NCBI GenBank assembly: GCA_945864305.1
Contig: CAMBAJ010000001.1
Location: forward strand, 1-64,000
Length of the DNA: 64,000 nt
Direction: 5' to 3'
Source of the DNA: an uncultured Clostridia bacterium
Lineage (GTDB): Bacteria > Bacillota > Clostridia > Oscillospirales > Oscillospiraceae
Part shown: piece by piece, positions 39,559-47,204 of the stretch
How positions within the stretch are numbered: position 1 is the first letter of the stretch
How the letters are laid out: each line of letters opens with the position of its first letter
The notes under the pieces: model-generated
Seen by the model: the letters and a program-made list of their open reading frames with translations, nothing else
What the model was told of the DNA's origin: nothing
The model's database searches: none
Position numbers and translations under genes: made by a program

Positions 39559-39635
<77 letters not shown>

Positions 39636-39640
<5 letters not shown>

Positions 39641-39670: not shown

Positions 39671-39693
39671 CTGCACTTTTTGCCTTAAAATAG

Positions 39694-39741
39694 TTTGGGT
39701 CAAAATTTGGGTCAGAGGTCTGACCCAAGCCGTGACCCAAA
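39694..39741. repeat. Left cluster of TGACCCAAA-type nonamers
   Basis: TTTGGGTCA at 39694 and 39706, and TGACCCAA(G/A) at 39721 and 39733, two in each orientation, 54 bp inside attL. Possible arm-type binding sites of the island recombinase. Confidence 0.6.
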
Positions 39742-39868
39742 CGGGAATATGTGAATTTAGTTCTGGGTAGCACAGCTCTCCTTTTATCGAGCCGTTTCTT
39801 GATGTTATTTCTAAATGTTGTTATAATTCAGCTATCCCCTTAGTCAAAAAAGAAGGAGCAGTCCAAAA

Positions 39869-41020
39869 ATGAATATGAAACAGCTTGTTATTTGTTTGGG
39901 CGTCGCTGTTATTATCAATCTGGCACTTACGATATTCTTTATAACAAAGGTATTCCGCCTTGAAAAACGCGCAAAAAAACCGTTGCAACATCACAAAAGC
40001 CATTCAACGTCAAATGGCTCAAAAGGGATTTTTATCGGAATATTTCTTTTAATATTCGTAATTCTCATCATTTTGGCTGAAGCCCCTGCTGTTTTTATGG
40101 CGGTATATAAGATTCCTGGAGATGCCCCATTTTCAGACGGGCGATATGCTTTTTGGGGAAGTCTCTTGGGCGGAGCAATTGGCGGAATCGCCGCGCTATT
40201 AACGATATACTACACTATTCGGTATTATAACAAAAAAGATGCTGAACAAAAAAATCTGGAAGTATATCGTCAGCAGGTCACTAAAATCGATAAGATTATT
40301 TCGGCCATTAATAATCGCGATGTCATAAATTATGATTTTACTTACGCCCTCGGTTTTTCAAAAGAGTTGTTGCAAGAAATAATTAACTATAATGGACTTG
40401 TTTGCTGGCTGAAAGGCTTTTTTACCGAATATGGAATGGGGGTTTTAGGTAGTTTTCAGCAAGAATACATTGACCTACAAAAAGTGAAAAAGCCTTATTA
40501 TAAGATTCAAGAAATTCTTAACGATAAAATCCATTTTATCCGTGGGTGTTTTTCTAGAGATTCTCAACTCGAGGAGAATGAGTGGAGGATAAAGCGCCCT
40601 TCTGTCATAGAGTTTCTTAATTTGCAACCAGAGTTACGGCAATGTGCAGAACGAATTGGCCACCTGGGCCTATATGAGAATGCAAACGAACTAATTCATA
40701 GCGACCCAACGCTTTCGTATATACTTGAGATTGAAGGCGGTGGATCGGCAGGATTATGGGCATCGCTAATCCATGACCCCCAAGGCGCGTTTAGTGGTGA
40801 TCCTGATCAATATAATAGATGGAAAGAATTTAATACATGCGTTCAAAATCTATTAATCCATCTGTCCGAGTTTAAGATTACGGAGTATCAAAGAATAGTT
40901 GTTGAAGGCGAGGCCGTTACACTTCCACAATATTATATCAAAAAAGAAGGTTCCTTCATGCACGAAACAACTACTGTTGAAGAGTATCCGCCTAAGGAAG
41001 AAGTGGCTAGTAAACCTTAA
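39869..41020 (+). CDS. Three-TM membrane protein with cytosolic domain, unknown function
   Basis: 383 aa. Transmembrane segments lie at about residues 6-27, 53-77 and 94-115 (FWGSLLGGAIGGIAALLTIYYTIRYY), followed by a charged ~260-residue helical cytosolic domain. The TM plus coiled-coil layout recalls putative abortive-infection (AbiC-like) membrane proteins, but no diagnostic motif is seen. The gene is AT-rich compared with all neighbours. It is the first gene inside the island, has AGAAGGAG before the ATG, and ends at a bidirectional terminator facing the integrase. Confidence 0.75.
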   Translation: MNMKQLVICLGVAVIINLALTIFFITKVFRLEKRAKKPLQHHKSHSTSNGSKGIFIGIFLLIFVILIILAEAPAVFMAVYKIPGDAPFSDGRYAFWGSLLGGAIGGIAALLTIYYTIRYYNKKDAEQKNLEVYRQQVTKIDKIISAINNRDVINYDFTYALGFSKELLQEIINYNGLVCWLKGFFTEYGMGVLGSFQQEYIDLQKVKKPYYKIQEILNDKIHFIRGCFSRDSQLEENEWRIKRPSVIEFLNLQPELRQCAERIGHLGLYENANELIHSDPTLSYILEIEGGGSAGLWASLIHDPQGAFSGDPDQYNRWKEFNTCVQNLLIHLSEFKITEYQRIVVEGEAVTLPQYYIKKEGSFMHETTTVEEYPPKEEVASKP

Positions 41021-41067: not shown

Positions 41068-41110
41068 AATGGCGAGAGTCTTTGGCAGATTCTCGCCATT
41101 CTTTCTTTTT
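41068..41110. terminator. Terminator between the membrane-protein gene and the integrase
   Basis: AATGGCGAGA and TCTCGCCATT separated by 13 nt, then CTTTCTTTTT on the plus strand. The genes converge here. Confidence 0.8.
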
Positions 41111-42261
41111 CAGATTGCGCCGGTTAATACGCTCGCCATCGTATTCGCCGCTTCCTTCTGCGCTGTTGTGGTAACATGGGCGTAGGTGTCCAGGGTGAAT
41201 CCCGCCGAGAAGTGGCCCAGCATCCCGGAGACGGTCTTGATATCTACGCCGTTCTGGAGGGCTAACGTGGCGAAGGTGTGGCGCAGGTCGTGGAAACGGA
41301 CTTTTGGTAGCCCTGCCCGTTTCAGCACTCGGTGGAGCATATGGAGGACACTGTCCGGGGAGATTGGGCCACCCGTGGGGGATGGAAATACGTATTGGCT
41401 GTTGCCGCCTTTTTTCTTCTGTGTTTTCAGAACGTCTATCGCATCCGCCGACAGCGGCAGGGTGCGGTAGGCGTTTTTCGTTTTCAAGGGGGCTTCCACG
41501 ATCTCACCGTCGATGCGGGCGATCTGCCGCTGTACCCGGAGGCTGCCATGCTCCAAATCAATGTCGCTCCATTTCAAGCCAAGCAGCTCTCCCCGGCGCA
41601 GGCCGGTGGCCAGTTCGATGTAGTACATCTCGAACACCCCACTTTCTTTTGCCTCCCGCAGGAAAGAGGTCAACTGCTCGACGGGGAGAGTTTTCATCTC
41701 CCGGTGTTCGAGTTTTGGGAGGGCACAGGCGTCGGCTGGATTGGTCAGGATGAGTCTTTGCTCGATTGCCAGATTCAAGGCAGAGCAGATGATTTGGTTA
41801 ATGTTCCGTACCGTCTTGGCGCTGAGGCCTTTTGGTTGCTTCTTGGATTCGATACGCTCCACTCGCCCATTTCCCAATAGCTTTTTGTAGAGTTTCTGCA
41901 ATTCCAGAGAAGTAAGTTTATTCAACGGGATGCTGCCGATGTTGGGCTTGATGTGGTTCTCGATGTAGCCCCGATAGGTCTGGTGAGAGGATGGGCGGAC
42001 TTTGATTTTGGCGTAGTTTTCAAACCAGACGTCCATCCATTGCCCGACTGTGTACTGGCCCACTTTGCTCATATCCAGTTTGGCAGAGTCCTCGATAGCC
42101 CGTTTCAGCTTTTCTTTGACCTCTGTCTGAGTCTTACCAAGGATATTCTTGTAGATGGTCTTGCCTGTTGCCGGGTCATGTCCTGCCGTGTAGCGGCCCT
42201 CCCAGCGGCCATCCTTTCGTTTGCGGATGCTGCCCTCGCCGTTGGCTCGTTTCTTTGCCAT
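41110..42261 (-). CDS. int: Tyrosine recombinase (phage/ICE-type integrase)
   Basis: 383 aa. An N-terminal AP2-like DNA-binding segment (GEGSIRKRKDGRWEGRYTAG) is followed by a SAM-like core-binding domain and the catalytic domain. Active-site residues are Arg in ATGLRRGELLGL, Lys in PLKTKNAYR, HDLRHTFAT, His in MLGHFS and the nucleophile Tyr in TLDTYAHVT. All are intact, so the enzyme is probably active. It should integrate and excise the island at tRNA-fMet. It sits near the middle of the island, not beside an att site. Its ATG overlaps the stop of the small gene in front. Confidence 0.95.
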   Translation of the reverse strand: MAKKRANGEGSIRKRKDGRWEGRYTAGHDPATGKTIYKNILGKTQTEVKEKLKRAIEDSAKLDMSKVGQYTVGQWMDVWFENYAKIKVRPSSHQTYRGYIENHIKPNIGSIPLNKLTSLELQKLYKKLLGNGRVERIESKKQPKGLSAKTVRNINQIICSALNLAIEQRLILTNPADACALPKLEHREMKTLPVEQLTSFLREAKESGVFEMYYIELATGLRRGELLGLKWSDIDLEHGSLRVQRQIARIDGEIVEAPLKTKNAYRTLPLSADAIDVLKTQKKKGGNSQYVFPSPTGGPISPDSVLHMLHRVLKRAGLPKVRFHDLRHTFATLALQNGVDIKTVSGMLGHFSAGFTLDTYAHVTTTAQKEAANTMASVLTGAI

Positions 42262-42566
42262 CAGTCATCCCTCCTCTGCTGCTGTCCCATCCGGTGTTCT
42301 TCTTCCTCCGCGAAGGAGTAGGGCGGCTCCATGCTCAGTTCGCTGATAATGCCCCAGGCCAGACGGAAACCTGCGGCGAAACTGGCGAGGGCGGTTTCGT
42401 CCCGCAGCTCTGCTTCCAGGTCCACCAATTTCAGAAGACTGCGGCGTTCCTGTTTGGCCTTGCCCTCAGTCAATGCCTGATGGATTTCGTTAATTTCCTG
42501 CCGCAGTTCCGGGAAATCCGGCTCCTTGAAGAATTGTCGCTGCAGTCCTCTCATGTATTCGTACAT
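42261..42566 (-). CDS. Small helical protein co-transcribed with the integrase (DUF6809-like)
   Basis: 101 aa, highly charged and helical: EPDFPELRQEINEIHQALTEG and KLVDLEAELRDETALASFAAGFRLAWGII. Similar short proteins precede integrases or other genes in clostridial mobile elements and are annotated as unknown. A role as recombination directionality factor is possible but not shown; it lacks a clear winged-helix Xis signature. GGAGG precedes the ATG and the stop overlaps the integrase start. Confidence 0.75.
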   Translation of the reverse strand: MYEYMRGLQRQFFKEPDFPELRQEINEIHQALTEGKAKQERRSLLKLVDLEAELRDETALASFAAGFRLAWGIISELSMEPPYSFAEEEEHRMGQQQRRDD

Positions 42567-42724
42567 CGTATCGCCTCCTTGTCAGCGACACACAATACCA
42601 TCCCCTGACCTTAATAGCCATCCCAACCGGGCAGAGTTATCAGATTGTTATCAATTGCGGTTTGAACTGCGCCGAGGCTTATTCTTTGTTTTGCGACGCA
42701 ATTTTTGAGGGTGTTCGCCTGCCC

Positions 42725-42774
42725 AAAAAGGCATCTTCCGTTCTGGCGTTCGGCAGAGCGGAAGATGCCTTTTT
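42725..42774. terminator. Long bidirectional terminator hairpin
   Basis: AAAAAGGCATCTTCCG and CGGAAGATGCCTTTTT are exact complements flanking an 18-nt loop that itself can pair (TTCTG/CAGAG). T runs occur on both strands. Confidence 0.85.
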
Positions 42775-42807
42775 GCTCACGATAGCATATCTTTCGGGGC
42801 ATGCCCC

Positions 42808-43342: not shown

Positions 43343-44629
43343 ATGGGGGAAGAATTGATGCGCAAAGTCTGGGGCATCTGCGCAGACCGCTATGGTGCTG
43401 CTTTGACGGATATCATTTTCAACAGACTGCAGCAGGAGCTTCAAAATATTACCGTAAATGGCTTTTCCGAAGACTACTTGTCCACAAGCGGCATCTGCCT
43501 GGAGCTCCAGCACCGCAACGCATTACAGATCTGTCTTGGCACGGTTGGCAACTCATTTGTCGCCTACTTGTTAGGTATCACAGAGATCAATCCCCTCCCG
43601 CCACATTACCGCTGTCCTCACTGCAAGCGGGTAACCTTTGTATCGGACGTTTTGGATGGATTTGATTTACCGCCGCAGGATTGCCCTGTCTGCCGCACTC
43701 CCATGGAAGGTGACGGACATCATTTGCATACCGCATGGTTCACCGGGTGGGATGGAACTTGCCCACCAGCCTTTGGGGAGTTTAGGATGACTCCGAAGGG
43801 AATCCAAATAACAGAGCAGGCTTTGAAAAAACATTCTCCTCTGACACCGCTTGTATTCAGCAATGGCCGGTTCGCAGGCTGGTATCTTTGCAATTCAGAA
43901 AACCTGCGTCATGCGGAGTGGATACATCTCGCATATCCCGGACGTCCAAACCATATTGTACCGGGAGTGAAATACGACTGCGATCTGCCTGCGCCGCGTA
44001 TTCTTATCCATGACAGTGTTTTTTTAAGAAAGCTGGAATGGCTATCGGACGTTACCGGCGTTGAGCTATCCTCGATCCCGATGAATAACCCGGCTATATA
44101 TAACGCATTTTGCAGAGCAATTGAGTATGATACCGCTGACGCAGGTAATCTGCTCTGCACAACAGGTCTTTGCGCTTCGGAGGAACTGCTCAGTGACAGA
44201 TTTACTCTTTGGAGACAGGCTTCCAAGAGCGGATTATCTTTTTCCAGACTTGTCTCGCTGTATGGCGTTATGCATATAAGCGTTCGCCATTCGAGTGCAT
44301 TGGATTTGTCCACAGCGTTGACATTCAGTGACCGCGATTCCGTGATGGAGTATCTGATCCGTCAGGGTCTGCCCCCAAAGGACGCTTTCCAAACAGCCGA
44401 CAATATGCGGTACGGGAGATTTGCCCACATGCCAGCAGATGCATACCCCGTTTTTATACAGGGAATAAACGATGACGGCTTCTTTTTTCATGCGGCGCAA
44501 AACACGGAATATCTGTTTCCCAGAGCGCATAATTCAGCTGTCGTTATGAATGCTGTGCGACTGGCCTGGTTTTCCATTTATGAACCAAGTGCTTTTCGGG
44601 AAGTACAGGACATTGCCCACACTCCATGA
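43343..44629 (+). CDS. Degenerate PolC-like protein (DNA polymerase III alpha core homologue without catalytic Asp)
   Basis: 428 aa. Residues ~15-95 match the start of the PolC polymerase core (YGAALTDIIFNRLQQELQNI; GNSFVAYLLGITEINPLPPHY). The zinc site CPHC...CPVC (91/94/114/117) and GFDLPPQDCPVC are kept. Where PolC has VPDIDLNFSG with two catalytic Asp, this has CPPAFGEFRM. The third Asp (KLDILGHDDP) is replaced in PAPRILIHDS. About 70 residues including the TTGQHPGG region are deleted. The finger region is recognisable again (SVMEYLIRQGLPPKDAF; YLFPRAHNSAVVMNAVRLAWF). PHP, exonuclease, OB and C-terminal parts are absent. It cannot polymerise; a decoy, sensor or replisome-binding role is inference. 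Confidence 0.85.
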   Translation: MGEELMRKVWGICADRYGAALTDIIFNRLQQELQNITVNGFSEDYLSTSGICLELQHRNALQICLGTVGNSFVAYLLGITEINPLPPHYRCPHCKRVTFVSDVLDGFDLPPQDCPVCRTPMEGDGHHLHTAWFTGWDGTCPPAFGEFRMTPKGIQITEQALKKHSPLTPLVFSNGRFAGWYLCNSENLRHAEWIHLAYPGRPNHIVPGVKYDCDLPAPRILIHDSVFLRKLEWLSDVTGVELSSIPMNNPAIYNAFCRAIEYDTADAGNLLCTTGLCASEELLSDRFTLWRQASKSGLSFSRLVSLYGVMHISVRHSSALDLSTALTFSDRDSVMEYLIRQGLPPKDAFQTADNMRYGRFAHMPADAYPVFIQGINDDGFFFHAAQNTEYLFPRAHNSAVVMNAVRLAWFSIYEPSAFREVQDIAHTP

Positions 44630-44710
44630 GAAATCTTCCGTCCAACTTTGATGCGAAATCATCGGGGCGCTGGTAAACAGTAGCTGCCTATGCTTCTTCG
44701 CTCGCAGGCG

Positions 44711-44740
44711 TTGGACAAATTTACACATATATGTTAAGAT
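44711..44740 (+). promoter_or_regulatory. Promoter of the WYL-nuclease operon
   Basis: TTGGAC, 18-bp AT-rich spacer, TAAGAT, about 31 bp before the WYL start. Confidence 0.6.
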
Positions 44741-44771
44741 ACAGGCAACGATCAGACTGGGAGTGGATGTC

Positions 44772-45737
44772 ATGATGACAGATCGGGCCAACGCCATCTG
44801 CCTTCTTCAGATTTTGAAAGAATATTCTGATGAGAATCATATCCTGTCCATGCGGGAGATCATCGGAAAACTGTCTGCTTTGTATGATATGGAACTGGAC
44901 CGCCGCACCGTATACAGCGCCATAGATCTGCTGTGCAATCTGGGGTATGACATTTCTGTTTACGATGAAAACAAGAAGGGCTATTATCTGCGCAGCCGCG
45001 AATTTGAGGCTGCGGAAGTGCGTCTCCTGATGGACGCGGTTTATTCTTTCGATTATATTCCGGCCAAGCAAACGCAATATTTGATTCAAAAGCTGCAAGG
45101 CTTTCTCAGTGTTCATGAACGAAAGCAGTATAAAAATCTGACAGTTGTAAGACAGGAGCGGAAAACGCAGAATGCGGAGGTCTTTTTGAATATTGAGCTT
45201 TTGGACGAGGCCATCTCAAAAAAGCAAAAAGTCTCATTTACATATCTGGAATATGGGCTGGACAAGCAGCTTCACCCCCGGAGGGAAAAGCCCTATATCG
45301 TCAGCCCTTATGGAATGGTATGTGAGAACGAGCATTACTATTTGATCAACATCAAAGATGGTTTTTCAACGCCCAGCCTGTACCGAATCGATTTGATGAG
45401 GGACATCTCCCTTCTGAATGAACCTGTTGCCATAGATGCCAAAAACGCCTGTTTGGACTCCGTACAAAAGGTGACCTATGCGTTTGTAGGAAAGCAGGAA
45501 GAAATCAAACTGCGCTGTGAGAATTTCACACTTCGGTATGTGTTGGACCGGTTTGGGACGGATGTCCGGATCACGGATAACCATGGCGGCACCTTTACCG
45601 CCAGTTTCTCCGCTTCTCCGAATGGCGTCAAGTTTTGGGCGCTGCAGTACCTCCCTTACATAGAGGTTCTGTCCCCTCAGTCCTTGCGGGATTCCATCAT
45701 TGACAGCATCAAAAGCAACAAGTATCTGGAGGTGTAA
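44772..45737 (+). CDS. WYL-domain transcriptional regulator
   Basis: 321 aa. An N-terminal winged HTH (ANAICLLQILKEYSDENHILSMREI...RRTVYSAIDLLCNLG) is followed by a WYL domain (about 130-210: VSFTYLEY, IVSPYGMVCENEHYYLIN, YRIDLMRDI) and a C-terminal WCX extension. WYL proteins bind ligands, often nucleic acid, and regulate many phage-defence loci. The start is placed at the ATG at 44772 with GGGAG upstream; ATG 44775 is equally possible. It is followed 2 bp later by the nuclease gene, so it probably controls it and perhaps the PolC-like gene. Confidence 0.92.
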   Translation: MMTDRANAICLLQILKEYSDENHILSMREIIGKLSALYDMELDRRTVYSAIDLLCNLGYDISVYDENKKGYYLRSREFEAAEVRLLMDAVYSFDYIPAKQTQYLIQKLQGFLSVHERKQYKNLTVVRQERKTQNAEVFLNIELLDEAISKKQKVSFTYLEYGLDKQLHPRREKPYIVSPYGMVCENEHYYLINIKDGFSTPSLYRIDLMRDISLLNEPVAIDAKNACLDSVQKVTYAFVGKQEEIKLRCENFTLRYVLDRFGTDVRITDNHGGTFTASFSASPNGVKFWALQYLPYIEVLSPQSLRDSIIDSIKSNKYLEV

Positions 45738-45739
45738 CC

Positions 45740-46981
45740 ATGTATAGCGGCAGTCCAAGCACATCAAACGAGATCTCAGATAAAGAGGCGCTGCAGAACT
45801 TGTTGCTGGACATTCAGTGCCTGGATAGATTGTCAAAATGGAGCAATCGCTTTAATCTTTTTGACGTTCTGAAAATATCCGGCACCGAGATCCGCCACAG
45901 CAACGTGCTGGCATGGCTCCTTGATCCTAATGAGAACCACGGTCTCGGGGATGCTGTCCTGCGGAGGCTTTTGCAAACACTGGTGATCAATTCGCCCCAG
46001 GCAGATGTTTTCCATTCCCTCCTGATGGACCTGTATGGATTTACCGTTTTGCGGGAGTGGGAGCATATCGACCTGCTTGCAGTCTCTCATGAAGAAAGAT
46101 TCCTGCTTTGCATAGAAAACAAGGTTTTCTCCGGGGAACACGATCATCAGTTGGCCCGATATCAAGAGCTTCTGGAAAAAGAGTACCCGCAATATCACAA
46201 AATTTTTGCATTTCTCACGCCGGGCGGTACAGAGCCAGAGGAGGAAACCGCCTGTGGCACTTGGCAGGCGATCAGCTATGAGCAGATCATAGAGGTGGTA
46301 GAGGCTGCCAAGTTCGAAAAGACGCTGTCCGCAGAAGTCTCATATTTTATTGACCAATATTTGGATGCAGTCAGGAGGCATATTGTGGGAGACCGTGAGC
46401 TTGAAAAAATTTGCAGAGAGATCTATGCCAAACACCGTCAGGCGCTGGATCTGATTTATGAAAATCGCCCGGATACTGCTTCGCAGATTTCATCCATCGT
46501 GCAGGAATGGTGCGAAGAGAAATCCCACACAGGCGAGATCAGTTTTGATCCCCAATATTCCGGAAAAACGTACATTCGATTCACTACACCGTACATGACG
46601 AAACTCTTGCCTGAATTTGAAGAGGAAAAGAGCGGTTGGAACTCAAAAAGCATGTACTACTATGAGGTAGTCAACTATGGAAATTCTATCAAAGTTGTTT
46701 TGACCGTCGGGCGTGACAATCTCTCCGCACACCAGATGGACTGCTGTGAACAGCTGAGCACACTCTTAAATCAGCCGGACAAAAAAGAGGCGTGGCGTTG
46801 GAAACGGTTGTTTGCTACACGTCGGCACAGCATAAAAGCTGATCCTTTAACGGACGATTTGCATAAGGAACTCTTTCAGGCTATGGATCAATATTGGGAA
46901 CAAATCGCTGATTTTGAGCATAAAACTTGTACAGCGATTGAACAATCTTCCCAAACGCTTGATGGGAACCTTCCCGTTTGA
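45740..46981 (+). CDS. PD-(D/E)XK-superfamily nuclease
   Basis: 413 aa. The family start TEIRHSNVLAWLLDPNENHGLGDAVLRRLL (residues 49-78) and the catalytic core EHIDLLAV...FLLCIENKVFSGEHDHQLARYQELL (D111, E126, K128) identify the PDDEXK_4 group of restriction-like nucleases, often found as solitary cargo in defence islands. The C-terminal ~200 residues carry no known domain and may sense a target. The active site is intact. It is directly coupled to the WYL regulator, and is the last gene before attR. Confidence 0.88.
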   Translation: MYSGSPSTSNEISDKEALQNLLLDIQCLDRLSKWSNRFNLFDVLKISGTEIRHSNVLAWLLDPNENHGLGDAVLRRLLQTLVINSPQADVFHSLLMDLYGFTVLREWEHIDLLAVSHEERFLLCIENKVFSGEHDHQLARYQELLEKEYPQYHKIFAFLTPGGTEPEEETACGTWQAISYEQIIEVVEAAKFEKTLSAEVSYFIDQYLDAVRRHIVGDRELEKICREIYAKHRQALDLIYENRPDTASQISSIVQEWCEEKSHTGEISFDPQYSGKTYIRFTTPYMTKLLPEFEEEKSGWNSKSMYYYEVVNYGNSIKVVLTVGRDNLSAHQMDCCEQLSTLLNQPDKKEAWRWKRLFATRRHSIKADPLTDDLHKELFQAMDQYWEQIADFEHKTCTAIEQSSQTLDGNLPV

Positions 46982-47019
46982 TCATGGGAGATTCCTGTCT
47001 TCACCGCCACTCTATGGCC

Positions 47020-47040
47020 TGACCCAAACCGTGACCCAGA
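47020..47040. repeat. Right pair of TGACCCAAA-type nonamers
   Basis: TGACCCAAA at 47020 and TGACCCAGA at 47032, with the same 12-bp phasing as the left cluster, about 110 bp inside attR. Confidence 0.6.
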
Positions 47041-47152
47041 CTGGGATCGGAGCAGGCAGCAGACAACGGAACCAACGGAGCGGACAGCAAACAATTTTGA
47101 CCAAATAGGCCCGGAAAGGTCTCAAAAGCAGTCGACAGCAGCCTCGGCCGCA

Positions 47153-47204
47153 GCTCATAACCCGGAGGTCGTAGGTTCAAGTCCTGCCCCCGCAACCATA
47201 AAAC
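47153..47204 (+). repeat. attR, 52-bp direct repeat and tRNA-fMet 3' remnant
   Basis: Exact copy of 39589-39640: half an anticodon arm, variable loop, T arm and CCA of tRNA-fMet with no 5' half, so not a functional tRNA. Confidence 0.92.

What the first reader, a model, noticed from the sequence alone, without database searches (positions are those of the whole stretch)
43343..46981. Three-gene candidate defence cassette: PolC-like protein, WYL regulator, PD-(D/E)XK nuclease
The three genes are co-directional. The WYL and nuclease genes are 2 bp apart, with a promoter at 44711-44740, and the cassette is the right-hand cargo of a tRNA-integrated island. WYL regulators and PDDEXK_4 nucleases are both recurrent in defence islands. 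Together with an inactive polymerase homologue this makes a coherent but undescribed combination: replication sensing, ligand-controlled expression, DNA cleavage.
Basis: inference. Interest (0 to 1): 0.8.

Follow-up and report, generated by a model that had tools for sequence, protein, structure and literature searches.

The report
WYL-controlled nuclease pair beside dead PolC
A small mobile DNA island in a gut bacterium (Oscillibacter relatives) carries a probable phage-defence gene pair, a sensor-type regulator followed by a DNA-cutting enzyme, while the neighbouring broken copy of a replication polymerase turns out to be a separate passenger and not a conserved third part.

Summary
Three co-directional intact genes lie at 43343-46981, on the right side of a 7.56-kb island bounded by a perfect repeat of the tRNA-Met 3' end and carrying a tyrosine integrase. 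The first gene is a PolC fragment without the catalytic core, the second a WYL/WCX regulator, the third a PDDEXK_4 nuclease that matches PADLOC's candidate defence family PDC-S26 over almost its full length.

The three-gene system is not supported. All four copies of the triad are one recent island (94-99% identical); in one (O. valericigenes An890) the PolC-like gene is cut in half while WYL and nuclease are intact. Sixteen divergent nuclease loci showed no PolC-like gene. One, an independent human gut contig, has the same WYL-nuclease order (55% and 42% identity, genes abutting). So the unit is WYL + nuclease: a regulated candidate defence nuclease, a new variant of a known kind, untested.

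By-product: dead PolC derivatives recur in Oscillospirales. Three genomes from three families carry one fused to an XRE helix-turn-helix; I found no paper on this. Whether the window's PolC fragment does anything for the nuclease is open, and I think it unlikely (about 0.12).

The parts
39559..39634 (+). tRNA-Met(CAT), integration target
   Evidence: ARAGORN; same tRNA-Leu/tRNA-Met pair is the target in L040 and L041
39589..39639 (+). left att: 3' part of tRNA-Met
   Evidence: perfect direct repeat with 47153-47203, period 7564
39717..39748 (.). arm-type repeat near left end (GGTCTGACCCAAGCCGTGACCCAAACGGGAAT), with an inverted partner at 39693-39716
   Evidence: 84% repeat at 47016-47047; role as integrase arm sites is inference
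39869..41020 (+). membrane-anchored ORF, unknown; left cargo, no matching sequence in the L040 or L041 islands
41110..42261 (-). tyrosine integrase
   Evidence: PF00589 1.7e-30, PF14659 7.9e-17
42261..42566 (-). DUF6809 small protein upstream of integrase
   Evidence: PF20648 5.3e-7
43343..44629 (+). dead PolC fragment: Zn/N-palm and fingers of PolC, catalytic core missing; not a conserved partner of the pair
44712..44740 (+). sigma-70-like promoter candidate for WYL-nuclease
   Evidence: 9/12 match, TG-extended; number of such sites not above chance
44763..45737 (+). WYL-WCX regulator (N-terminal HTH weak)
   Evidence: dN/dS 0.05
45740..46981 (+). PDDEXK_4 nuclease, PADLOC PDC-S26; D111, E126, K128 motif
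   Evidence: PF14281 1.1e-36; PDLC04972 2.2e-131 over residues 12-401
47016..47047 (.). arm-type repeat near right end
47153..47203 (+). right att (tRNA-Met 3' end copy)

Best explanation
44763-46981 is a two-gene candidate defence module carried by a small tRNA-Met integrative island: a WYL-WCX transcription regulator and, 2 bp downstream and so probably translated from the same mRNA, a PD-(D/E)XK nuclease of the PDC-S26 kind. Most likely mechanism: the regulator binds the 133-bp gap upstream and keeps the pair low; on infection or DNA damage a ligand in the WYL pocket (nucleotide or ssDNA in characterised WYL proteins) changes it, nuclease level rises and DNA is cut, either the invader's or everything (abortive). 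Shown: gene order, families, nuclease motif, conservation of the pair in two lineages, mobility. Inferred: co-transcription, repression, ligand, cleavage target, anti-phage effect. The upstream PolC-like gene is a catalytically dead PolC derivative that joined this island independently.
For: Nuclease: PF14281 1.1e-36 and PDC-S26 2.2e-131 full length; D111...E126-N-K128 invariant in divergent homologues. Pair: MT838960.1 (L087) has WYL 394-1353 (55% id) directly followed by the nuclease (alignment from 1346; 42% id) and no PolC-like gene in the 393 bp upstream, where the window's copy ends 133 bp before WYL. WYL under strong purifying selection, 4 aa changes against 16 expected. PolC-like gene dispensable to the pair: L041 keeps only residues 194-428 of it, with WYL 100% and nuclease 99% identical. 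The nuclease moves alone on many carriers: integron-like cassette array, plasmids, recombinase element, phage contig. Literature: WYL regulators CapW and BrxR sit before defence operons and control them (PMC9122588, PMC9122589, PMC9122601).
Against: No experiment. The pair outside the island rests on a single divergent locus (L087). The other 15 nuclease loci have no WYL gene found next to them and the nearest other WYL relatives have no nuclease, so the partnership is recent or loose. No palindromic operator stands out and the promoter is no better than chance. The island's WYL has Leu211 where its relatives and DriD have the second Arg of the R-x-x-R pocket motif, so ssDNA sensing may be altered. 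PDC-S26 is itself only a candidate family. Selection on the nuclease is not significant over 19 differences (P 0.20).
Confidence: 0.6

Rival explanations
1. The three genes are one system: the dead PolC fragment binds replication intermediates or a phage replication protein, or acts as a decoy, and passes the signal to the WYL regulator, which releases the nuclease.
For: Same order in three of four island copies; the PolC-like ORF is intact after large divergence from PolC and shows mild constraint (27 aa changes, 33.1 expected, P 0.04); dead PolC fragments elsewhere are fused to an HTH, so such domains can be regulatory; one more PolC-like gene has a WYL gene about 1 kb upstream (L104).
Against: All copies are one recent island. 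L041 has the pair with half the gene. L087 has the pair without it. 0 of 16 nuclease loci and 0 of 7 PolC-like loci combine the two. The L104 WYL is only 33% identical and is separated from the PolC-like gene by another gene.
Confidence: 0.12
2. Ordinary genomic-island cargo with no joint function: the nuclease is a stand-alone gene (type IV-like or orphan restriction) and the WYL gene regulates something else or only itself.
For: Most nuclease relatives stand alone in unrelated contexts; WYL proteins of this broad type occur in 248 of 394 Oscillospirales genomes.
Against: 2-bp spacing in the window and abutting genes in a contig at 42-55% identity are hard to explain by chance; the same WYL subfamily (55%) is the partner in both.
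Confidence: 0.2
3. The nuclease is a selfish or competition factor of the island (excludes rival elements from the tRNA-Met site or stabilises the island) and not a host phage defence.
For: It lives on mobile carriers throughout: integron-like array, plasmids, recombinase element, phage contig; cargo has been swapped at the same site (L041).
Against: No specific evidence for element-against-element action; PDC families were proposed as defence candidates by embedding (PMC12988326).
Confidence: 0.12

Closest known systems
PADLOC PDC-S26 (PF14281 PDDEXK_4 single-gene phage defence candidate)
   Same: Nuclease matches the profile over residues 12-401 (E 2.2e-131), with the D-ExK motif
   Different: PDC-S26 is listed as a single gene; here it is paired with a WYL regulator. 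The family is unvalidated.
CapW (CBASS) and BrxR (BREX) WYL regulators
   Same: WYL + WCX domains, gene directly upstream of a defence-type effector on a mobile island
   Different: Different effector; no recognisable palindromic operator found; second pocket Arg replaced by Leu; similarity only at domain level
DriD (Caulobacter), ssDNA-sensing WYL activator
   Same: Closest solved WYL relatives by sequence (7TZV, 7U02, 8TP8; profile E 1e-8)
   Different: DriD is a DNA-damage activator with no nuclease partner; R-x-x-R only half kept in the window
PolC (Geobacillus kaustophilus 3F2B)
   Same: Residues 5-142 and 220-417 align to PolC 419-558 and 685-882 (E 3.7e-39), Zn cysteines kept
   Different: Catalytic core 559-684 replaced by 77 unrelated residues; OB, exo, PHP and C-terminal domains absent; cannot be a polymerase

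Membership tests
PDC-S26 / PDDEXK_4 | full-length profile match | tested here: met
   PDLC04972 2.2e-131, residues 12-401 of 413; PF14281 126.9 bits over cut-off 22.3
PDC-S26 / PDDEXK_4 | PD-(D/E)XK catalytic motif | tested here: met
   D111, E126, K128 invariant in alignments A2 and A6
PDC-S26 / PDDEXK_4 | anti-phage activity | not testable with these tools
   needs plating assays; PDC families unvalidated (PMC12988326)
CapW/BrxR-type defence WYL regulator | wHTH-WYL-WCX architecture | tested here: inconclusive
   WYL and WCX over cut-off; HTH_11 only 15.3 bits, cut-off 25
CapW/BrxR-type defence WYL regulator | conserved pocket arginines (R-x-x-R; PafB R211/R214 in PMC11804915) | tested here: not met
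   R208 kept, position 211 is Leu in the island WYL and Arg in L087, L085, L086 and DriD
CapW/BrxR-type defence WYL regulator | palindromic operator upstream | tested here: not met
   best inverted repeat in the 145-bp upstream region no better than shuffles, 100/100; a weak operator could be missed
CapW/BrxR-type defence WYL regulator | represses the downstream operon | not testable with these tools
   needs EMSA or reporter assay
PolC DNA polymerase III | catalytic Asp motifs PDIDLNF and LKLDILGHD | tested here: not met
   absent in window and L040 copies, present in canonical PolCs
PolC DNA polymerase III | curated family score | tested here: not met
   NF001688 185 bits against cut-off 873
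Restriction-modification | cognate methyltransferase in the locus | tested here: not met
   no methyltransferase among the island ORFs scanned
Integrative island at tRNA | tRNA 3' end duplicated and integrase inside | tested here: met
   perfect repeat and integrase; same site used in L040 and L041

The most novel reading that the evidence does not exclude
Catalytically dead PolC derivatives form a real, undescribed group of regulatory or sensor proteins in Oscillospirales, some fused to an XRE DNA-binding domain, and the window's copy is such a sensor that informs the adjacent WYL regulator about replication, coupling replication sensing to a defence nuclease.
Probability: 0.12. Interest if true: 0.75.

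Novelty: new variant of a known kind. Interest (0 to 1): 0.4.

Why it matters
If true, a candidate single-gene defence nuclease (PDC-S26) has a regulated form, which would show how a toxic nuclease is kept silent on a mobile island and gives a simple two-gene system to test. The check also uncovered that parts of the replicative polymerase PolC have been reused without catalysis, in some genomes fused to an HTH, which raises the question of whether dead polymerase domains can act as sensors of replication.

Tried and rejected
Three-gene system: rejected as the main reading (see rivals). Searches of viral contigs with all three proteins as single queries found nothing; with the WYL alignment nothing; with the nuclease alignment two loci without WYL. 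Wider dead-PolC search in viral contigs: none. Gut 'phage' contigs with contiguous PolC hits turned out to be PolC-type polymerase ORFs of 900-1464 aa that keep the PDID motif, beside housekeeping genes where the flanks could be read. Structure of the PolC fragment: pLDDT 39, not used. Nuclease model pLDDT 62.6; Foldseek E no better than 0.02; structural second look: core 100-189 on EcoO109I Z 5.2, 89 residues, rmsd 3.5; C-terminal 243-413 on unrelated a/b folds Z up to 7.4: middling, not used as evidence. Operator search: nothing above shuffles, no shared motif with L087. Empty-site test by the right flank gave no clear result. A tree groups the window's PolC fragment with the G043 paralogue (100%), but long branches and synteny (G043 and G068 paralogues both next to RtcB) suggest long-branch attraction. 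Literature: no paper found for PDC-S26 by name, PF14281, PDDEXK_4 with WYL, or a PolC pseudoenzyme with an HTH.

Full report
WHAT IS THERE. The host is an Oscillibacter-type genome: the same island is found in O. valericigenes An890 and in two MAGs. The island is bounded by a perfect repeat of the 3' end of tRNA-Met (39589-39639 and 47153-47203, 7564 bp apart), carries a tyrosine integrase (41110-42261 on the - strand), and has lower GC than the flanks. Near both ends lies a shared repeat around GTGACCCA (39717 and 47016) that looks like integrase arm sites (inference). In two other genomes the same tRNA-Leu/tRNA-Met pair is the target, and there the att copies at both ends share the same number of mismatches to the window.

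THE NUCLEASE. PF14281 PDDEXK_4, E 1.1e-36, and PADLOC PDC-S26, E 2.2e-131 over residues 12-401 of 413. D111, E126 and K128 are invariant in divergent homologues, so it is probably active. PDC families are unvalidated candidates found by a guilt-by-embedding approach (PMC12988326). Relatives occur in very different carriers: a Vibrio plasmid inside an integron-like cassette array, a Leptospira plasmid near an adenine methyltransferase and MazF, a contig with two serine recombinases, and a contig with a tape-measure protein.

THE REGULATOR. WYL and WCX domains over their cut-offs, a weak HTH. Its closest solved relatives are DriD-type proteins (that 7TZV, 7U02 and 8TP8 are DriD is partly my own knowledge, supported by PMC12340889). 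Characterised WYL proteins bind ssDNA through a tunnel with an R-x-x-R pair (PMC11804915). The island's protein keeps R208 but has Leu at 211, where L087, L085, L086 and DriD have Arg. So ssDNA sensing cannot be assumed.

THE PolC-LIKE GENE. It aligns to G. kaustophilus PolC 3F2B in two blocks, residues 5-142 and 220-417, and the segment between them that holds the catalytic aspartates is replaced by 77 unrelated residues. OB, exonuclease, PHP and C-terminal domains are missing. It cannot be a polymerase. Over 49 differences to the G008 copy it has 27 amino-acid changes where 33.1 are expected without selection (P 0.04), dN/dS 0.38: mild constraint, not decay. In An890 only residues 194-428 remain, preceded by a DnaQ-BRCT gene and a 176-aa ORF.

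IS IT ONE SYSTEM? The triad exists in four copies (window, L034, L035/L040, L036/L041), 94-99% identical: one recent event, so their shared order proves nothing. I therefore looked at divergent relatives. PolC-like: no other member of the same clade in 394 Oscillospirales genomes. Nuclease: 16 loci outside the island examined (L083, L084, L087-L095, L098-L102); none has the PolC-like gene, one has the WYL gene. The flanks held for L088-L093 are only about 1.5 kb or less. WYL: the other close relatives, G117 (53%) and G171 (50%), have neither, though G171 lies at a contig edge. The exception is important: MT838960.1, a 4.7-kb human gut scaffold from Mexico filed as phage, has WYL (55%) immediately followed by the nuclease (42%) and no PolC-like gene upstream. 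So the pair is older than the island, and the PolC-like gene is not part of it.

MECHANISM. I commit to a WYL-controlled nuclease acting in defence (0.6). Steps shown: order, families, active-site motif, a conserved pair, mobile carriers. Steps inferred: one mRNA, repression by WYL, the inducing ligand, DNA cleavage of phage or of the whole cell. CapW and BrxR are precedents for WYL control of defence operons (PMC9122588, PMC9122589), and about half of BrxR homologues lie with defence systems (PMC9122601). I do not file this regulator as a CapW/BrxR member: an operator palindrome and the second pocket arginine were tested and not found.

A BY-PRODUCT. While tracing the PolC fragment I met other accessory PolC proteins: a 721-aa protein in An890 with a PHP domain and no catalytic motif (L038), a 685-aa one in G043 (L037), an 829-aa one (L141) and a 900-aa one (L104) that keep PDID, and, most striking, an XRE helix-turn-helix fused to the PolC Zn/N-palm and fingers with the catalytic core missing (L134: HTH_3 1.1e-13, DNA_pol3_finger 2.4e-13). 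This fusion recurs at 75% and 40% identity in genomes of two further families (G113, G077): 3 of 87 genomes sampled. I found no paper on it. Dead PolC domains can thus be joined to DNA-binding regulators, which keeps a regulatory role of the window's fragment possible, but nothing ties it to this nuclease. The tree does not join the fragment with the XRE fusions.

VERDICT. Observation confirmed; interpretation partly supported. The defensible finding is a two-gene WYL + PDC-S26 module on a tRNA-Met island: a new variant of a known kind, of moderate interest.

Noticed in passing
L134:8281-9705 (G123), L139:7004-8455 (G113), L140:7199-8662 (G077): XRE helix-turn-helix fused to a catalytically dead PolC fragment (Zn/N-palm + fingers), conserved in three Oscillospirales families at 40-75% identity; in G113 it lies directly upstream of pyrH-frr-uppS.
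   Followed up: partly
L038:8666-10831: 721-aa PolC-like protein with PHP domain and no catalytic motif in O. valericigenes An890, the same strain that carries the truncated island copy.
   Followed up: partly
L104:2059-6823: WYL gene, a 268-aa ORF and a 900-aa PolC-like protein (PHP, PDID kept, no exonuclease) in a row on what looks like an integrative conjugative element.
   Followed up: partly
L037:8652-12391 and L141:3059-6742: PolC paralogues next to RtcB in two genomes of one genus; intact motifs in one (G068), degenerate and split in the other (G043).
   Followed up: partly
window 44763-45737: Leu211 replaces the second arginine of the WYL R-x-x-R pocket motif, in the island copies.
   Followed up: partly
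L041:5620-7419: DnaQ-type exonuclease + BRCT protein and a 176-aa ORF replace the first half of the PolC-like gene: cargo exchange at the same tRNA-Met site.
   Followed up: partly
window 39869-41020: 383-aa membrane-anchored ORF in the left half of the island, no family at cut-off (PADLOC CARF_TM only E 0.026), without a match in the L040 and L041 islands.
   Followed up: no
window 42724-42775: near-perfect 25-bp inverted repeat with a 2-nt loop between the DUF6809 gene and the PolC-like gene; possible bidirectional terminator.
   Followed up: no
L102:4986-6158: PDC-S26 relative inside an integron-like array of small genes on a Vibrio plasmid.
   Followed up: no
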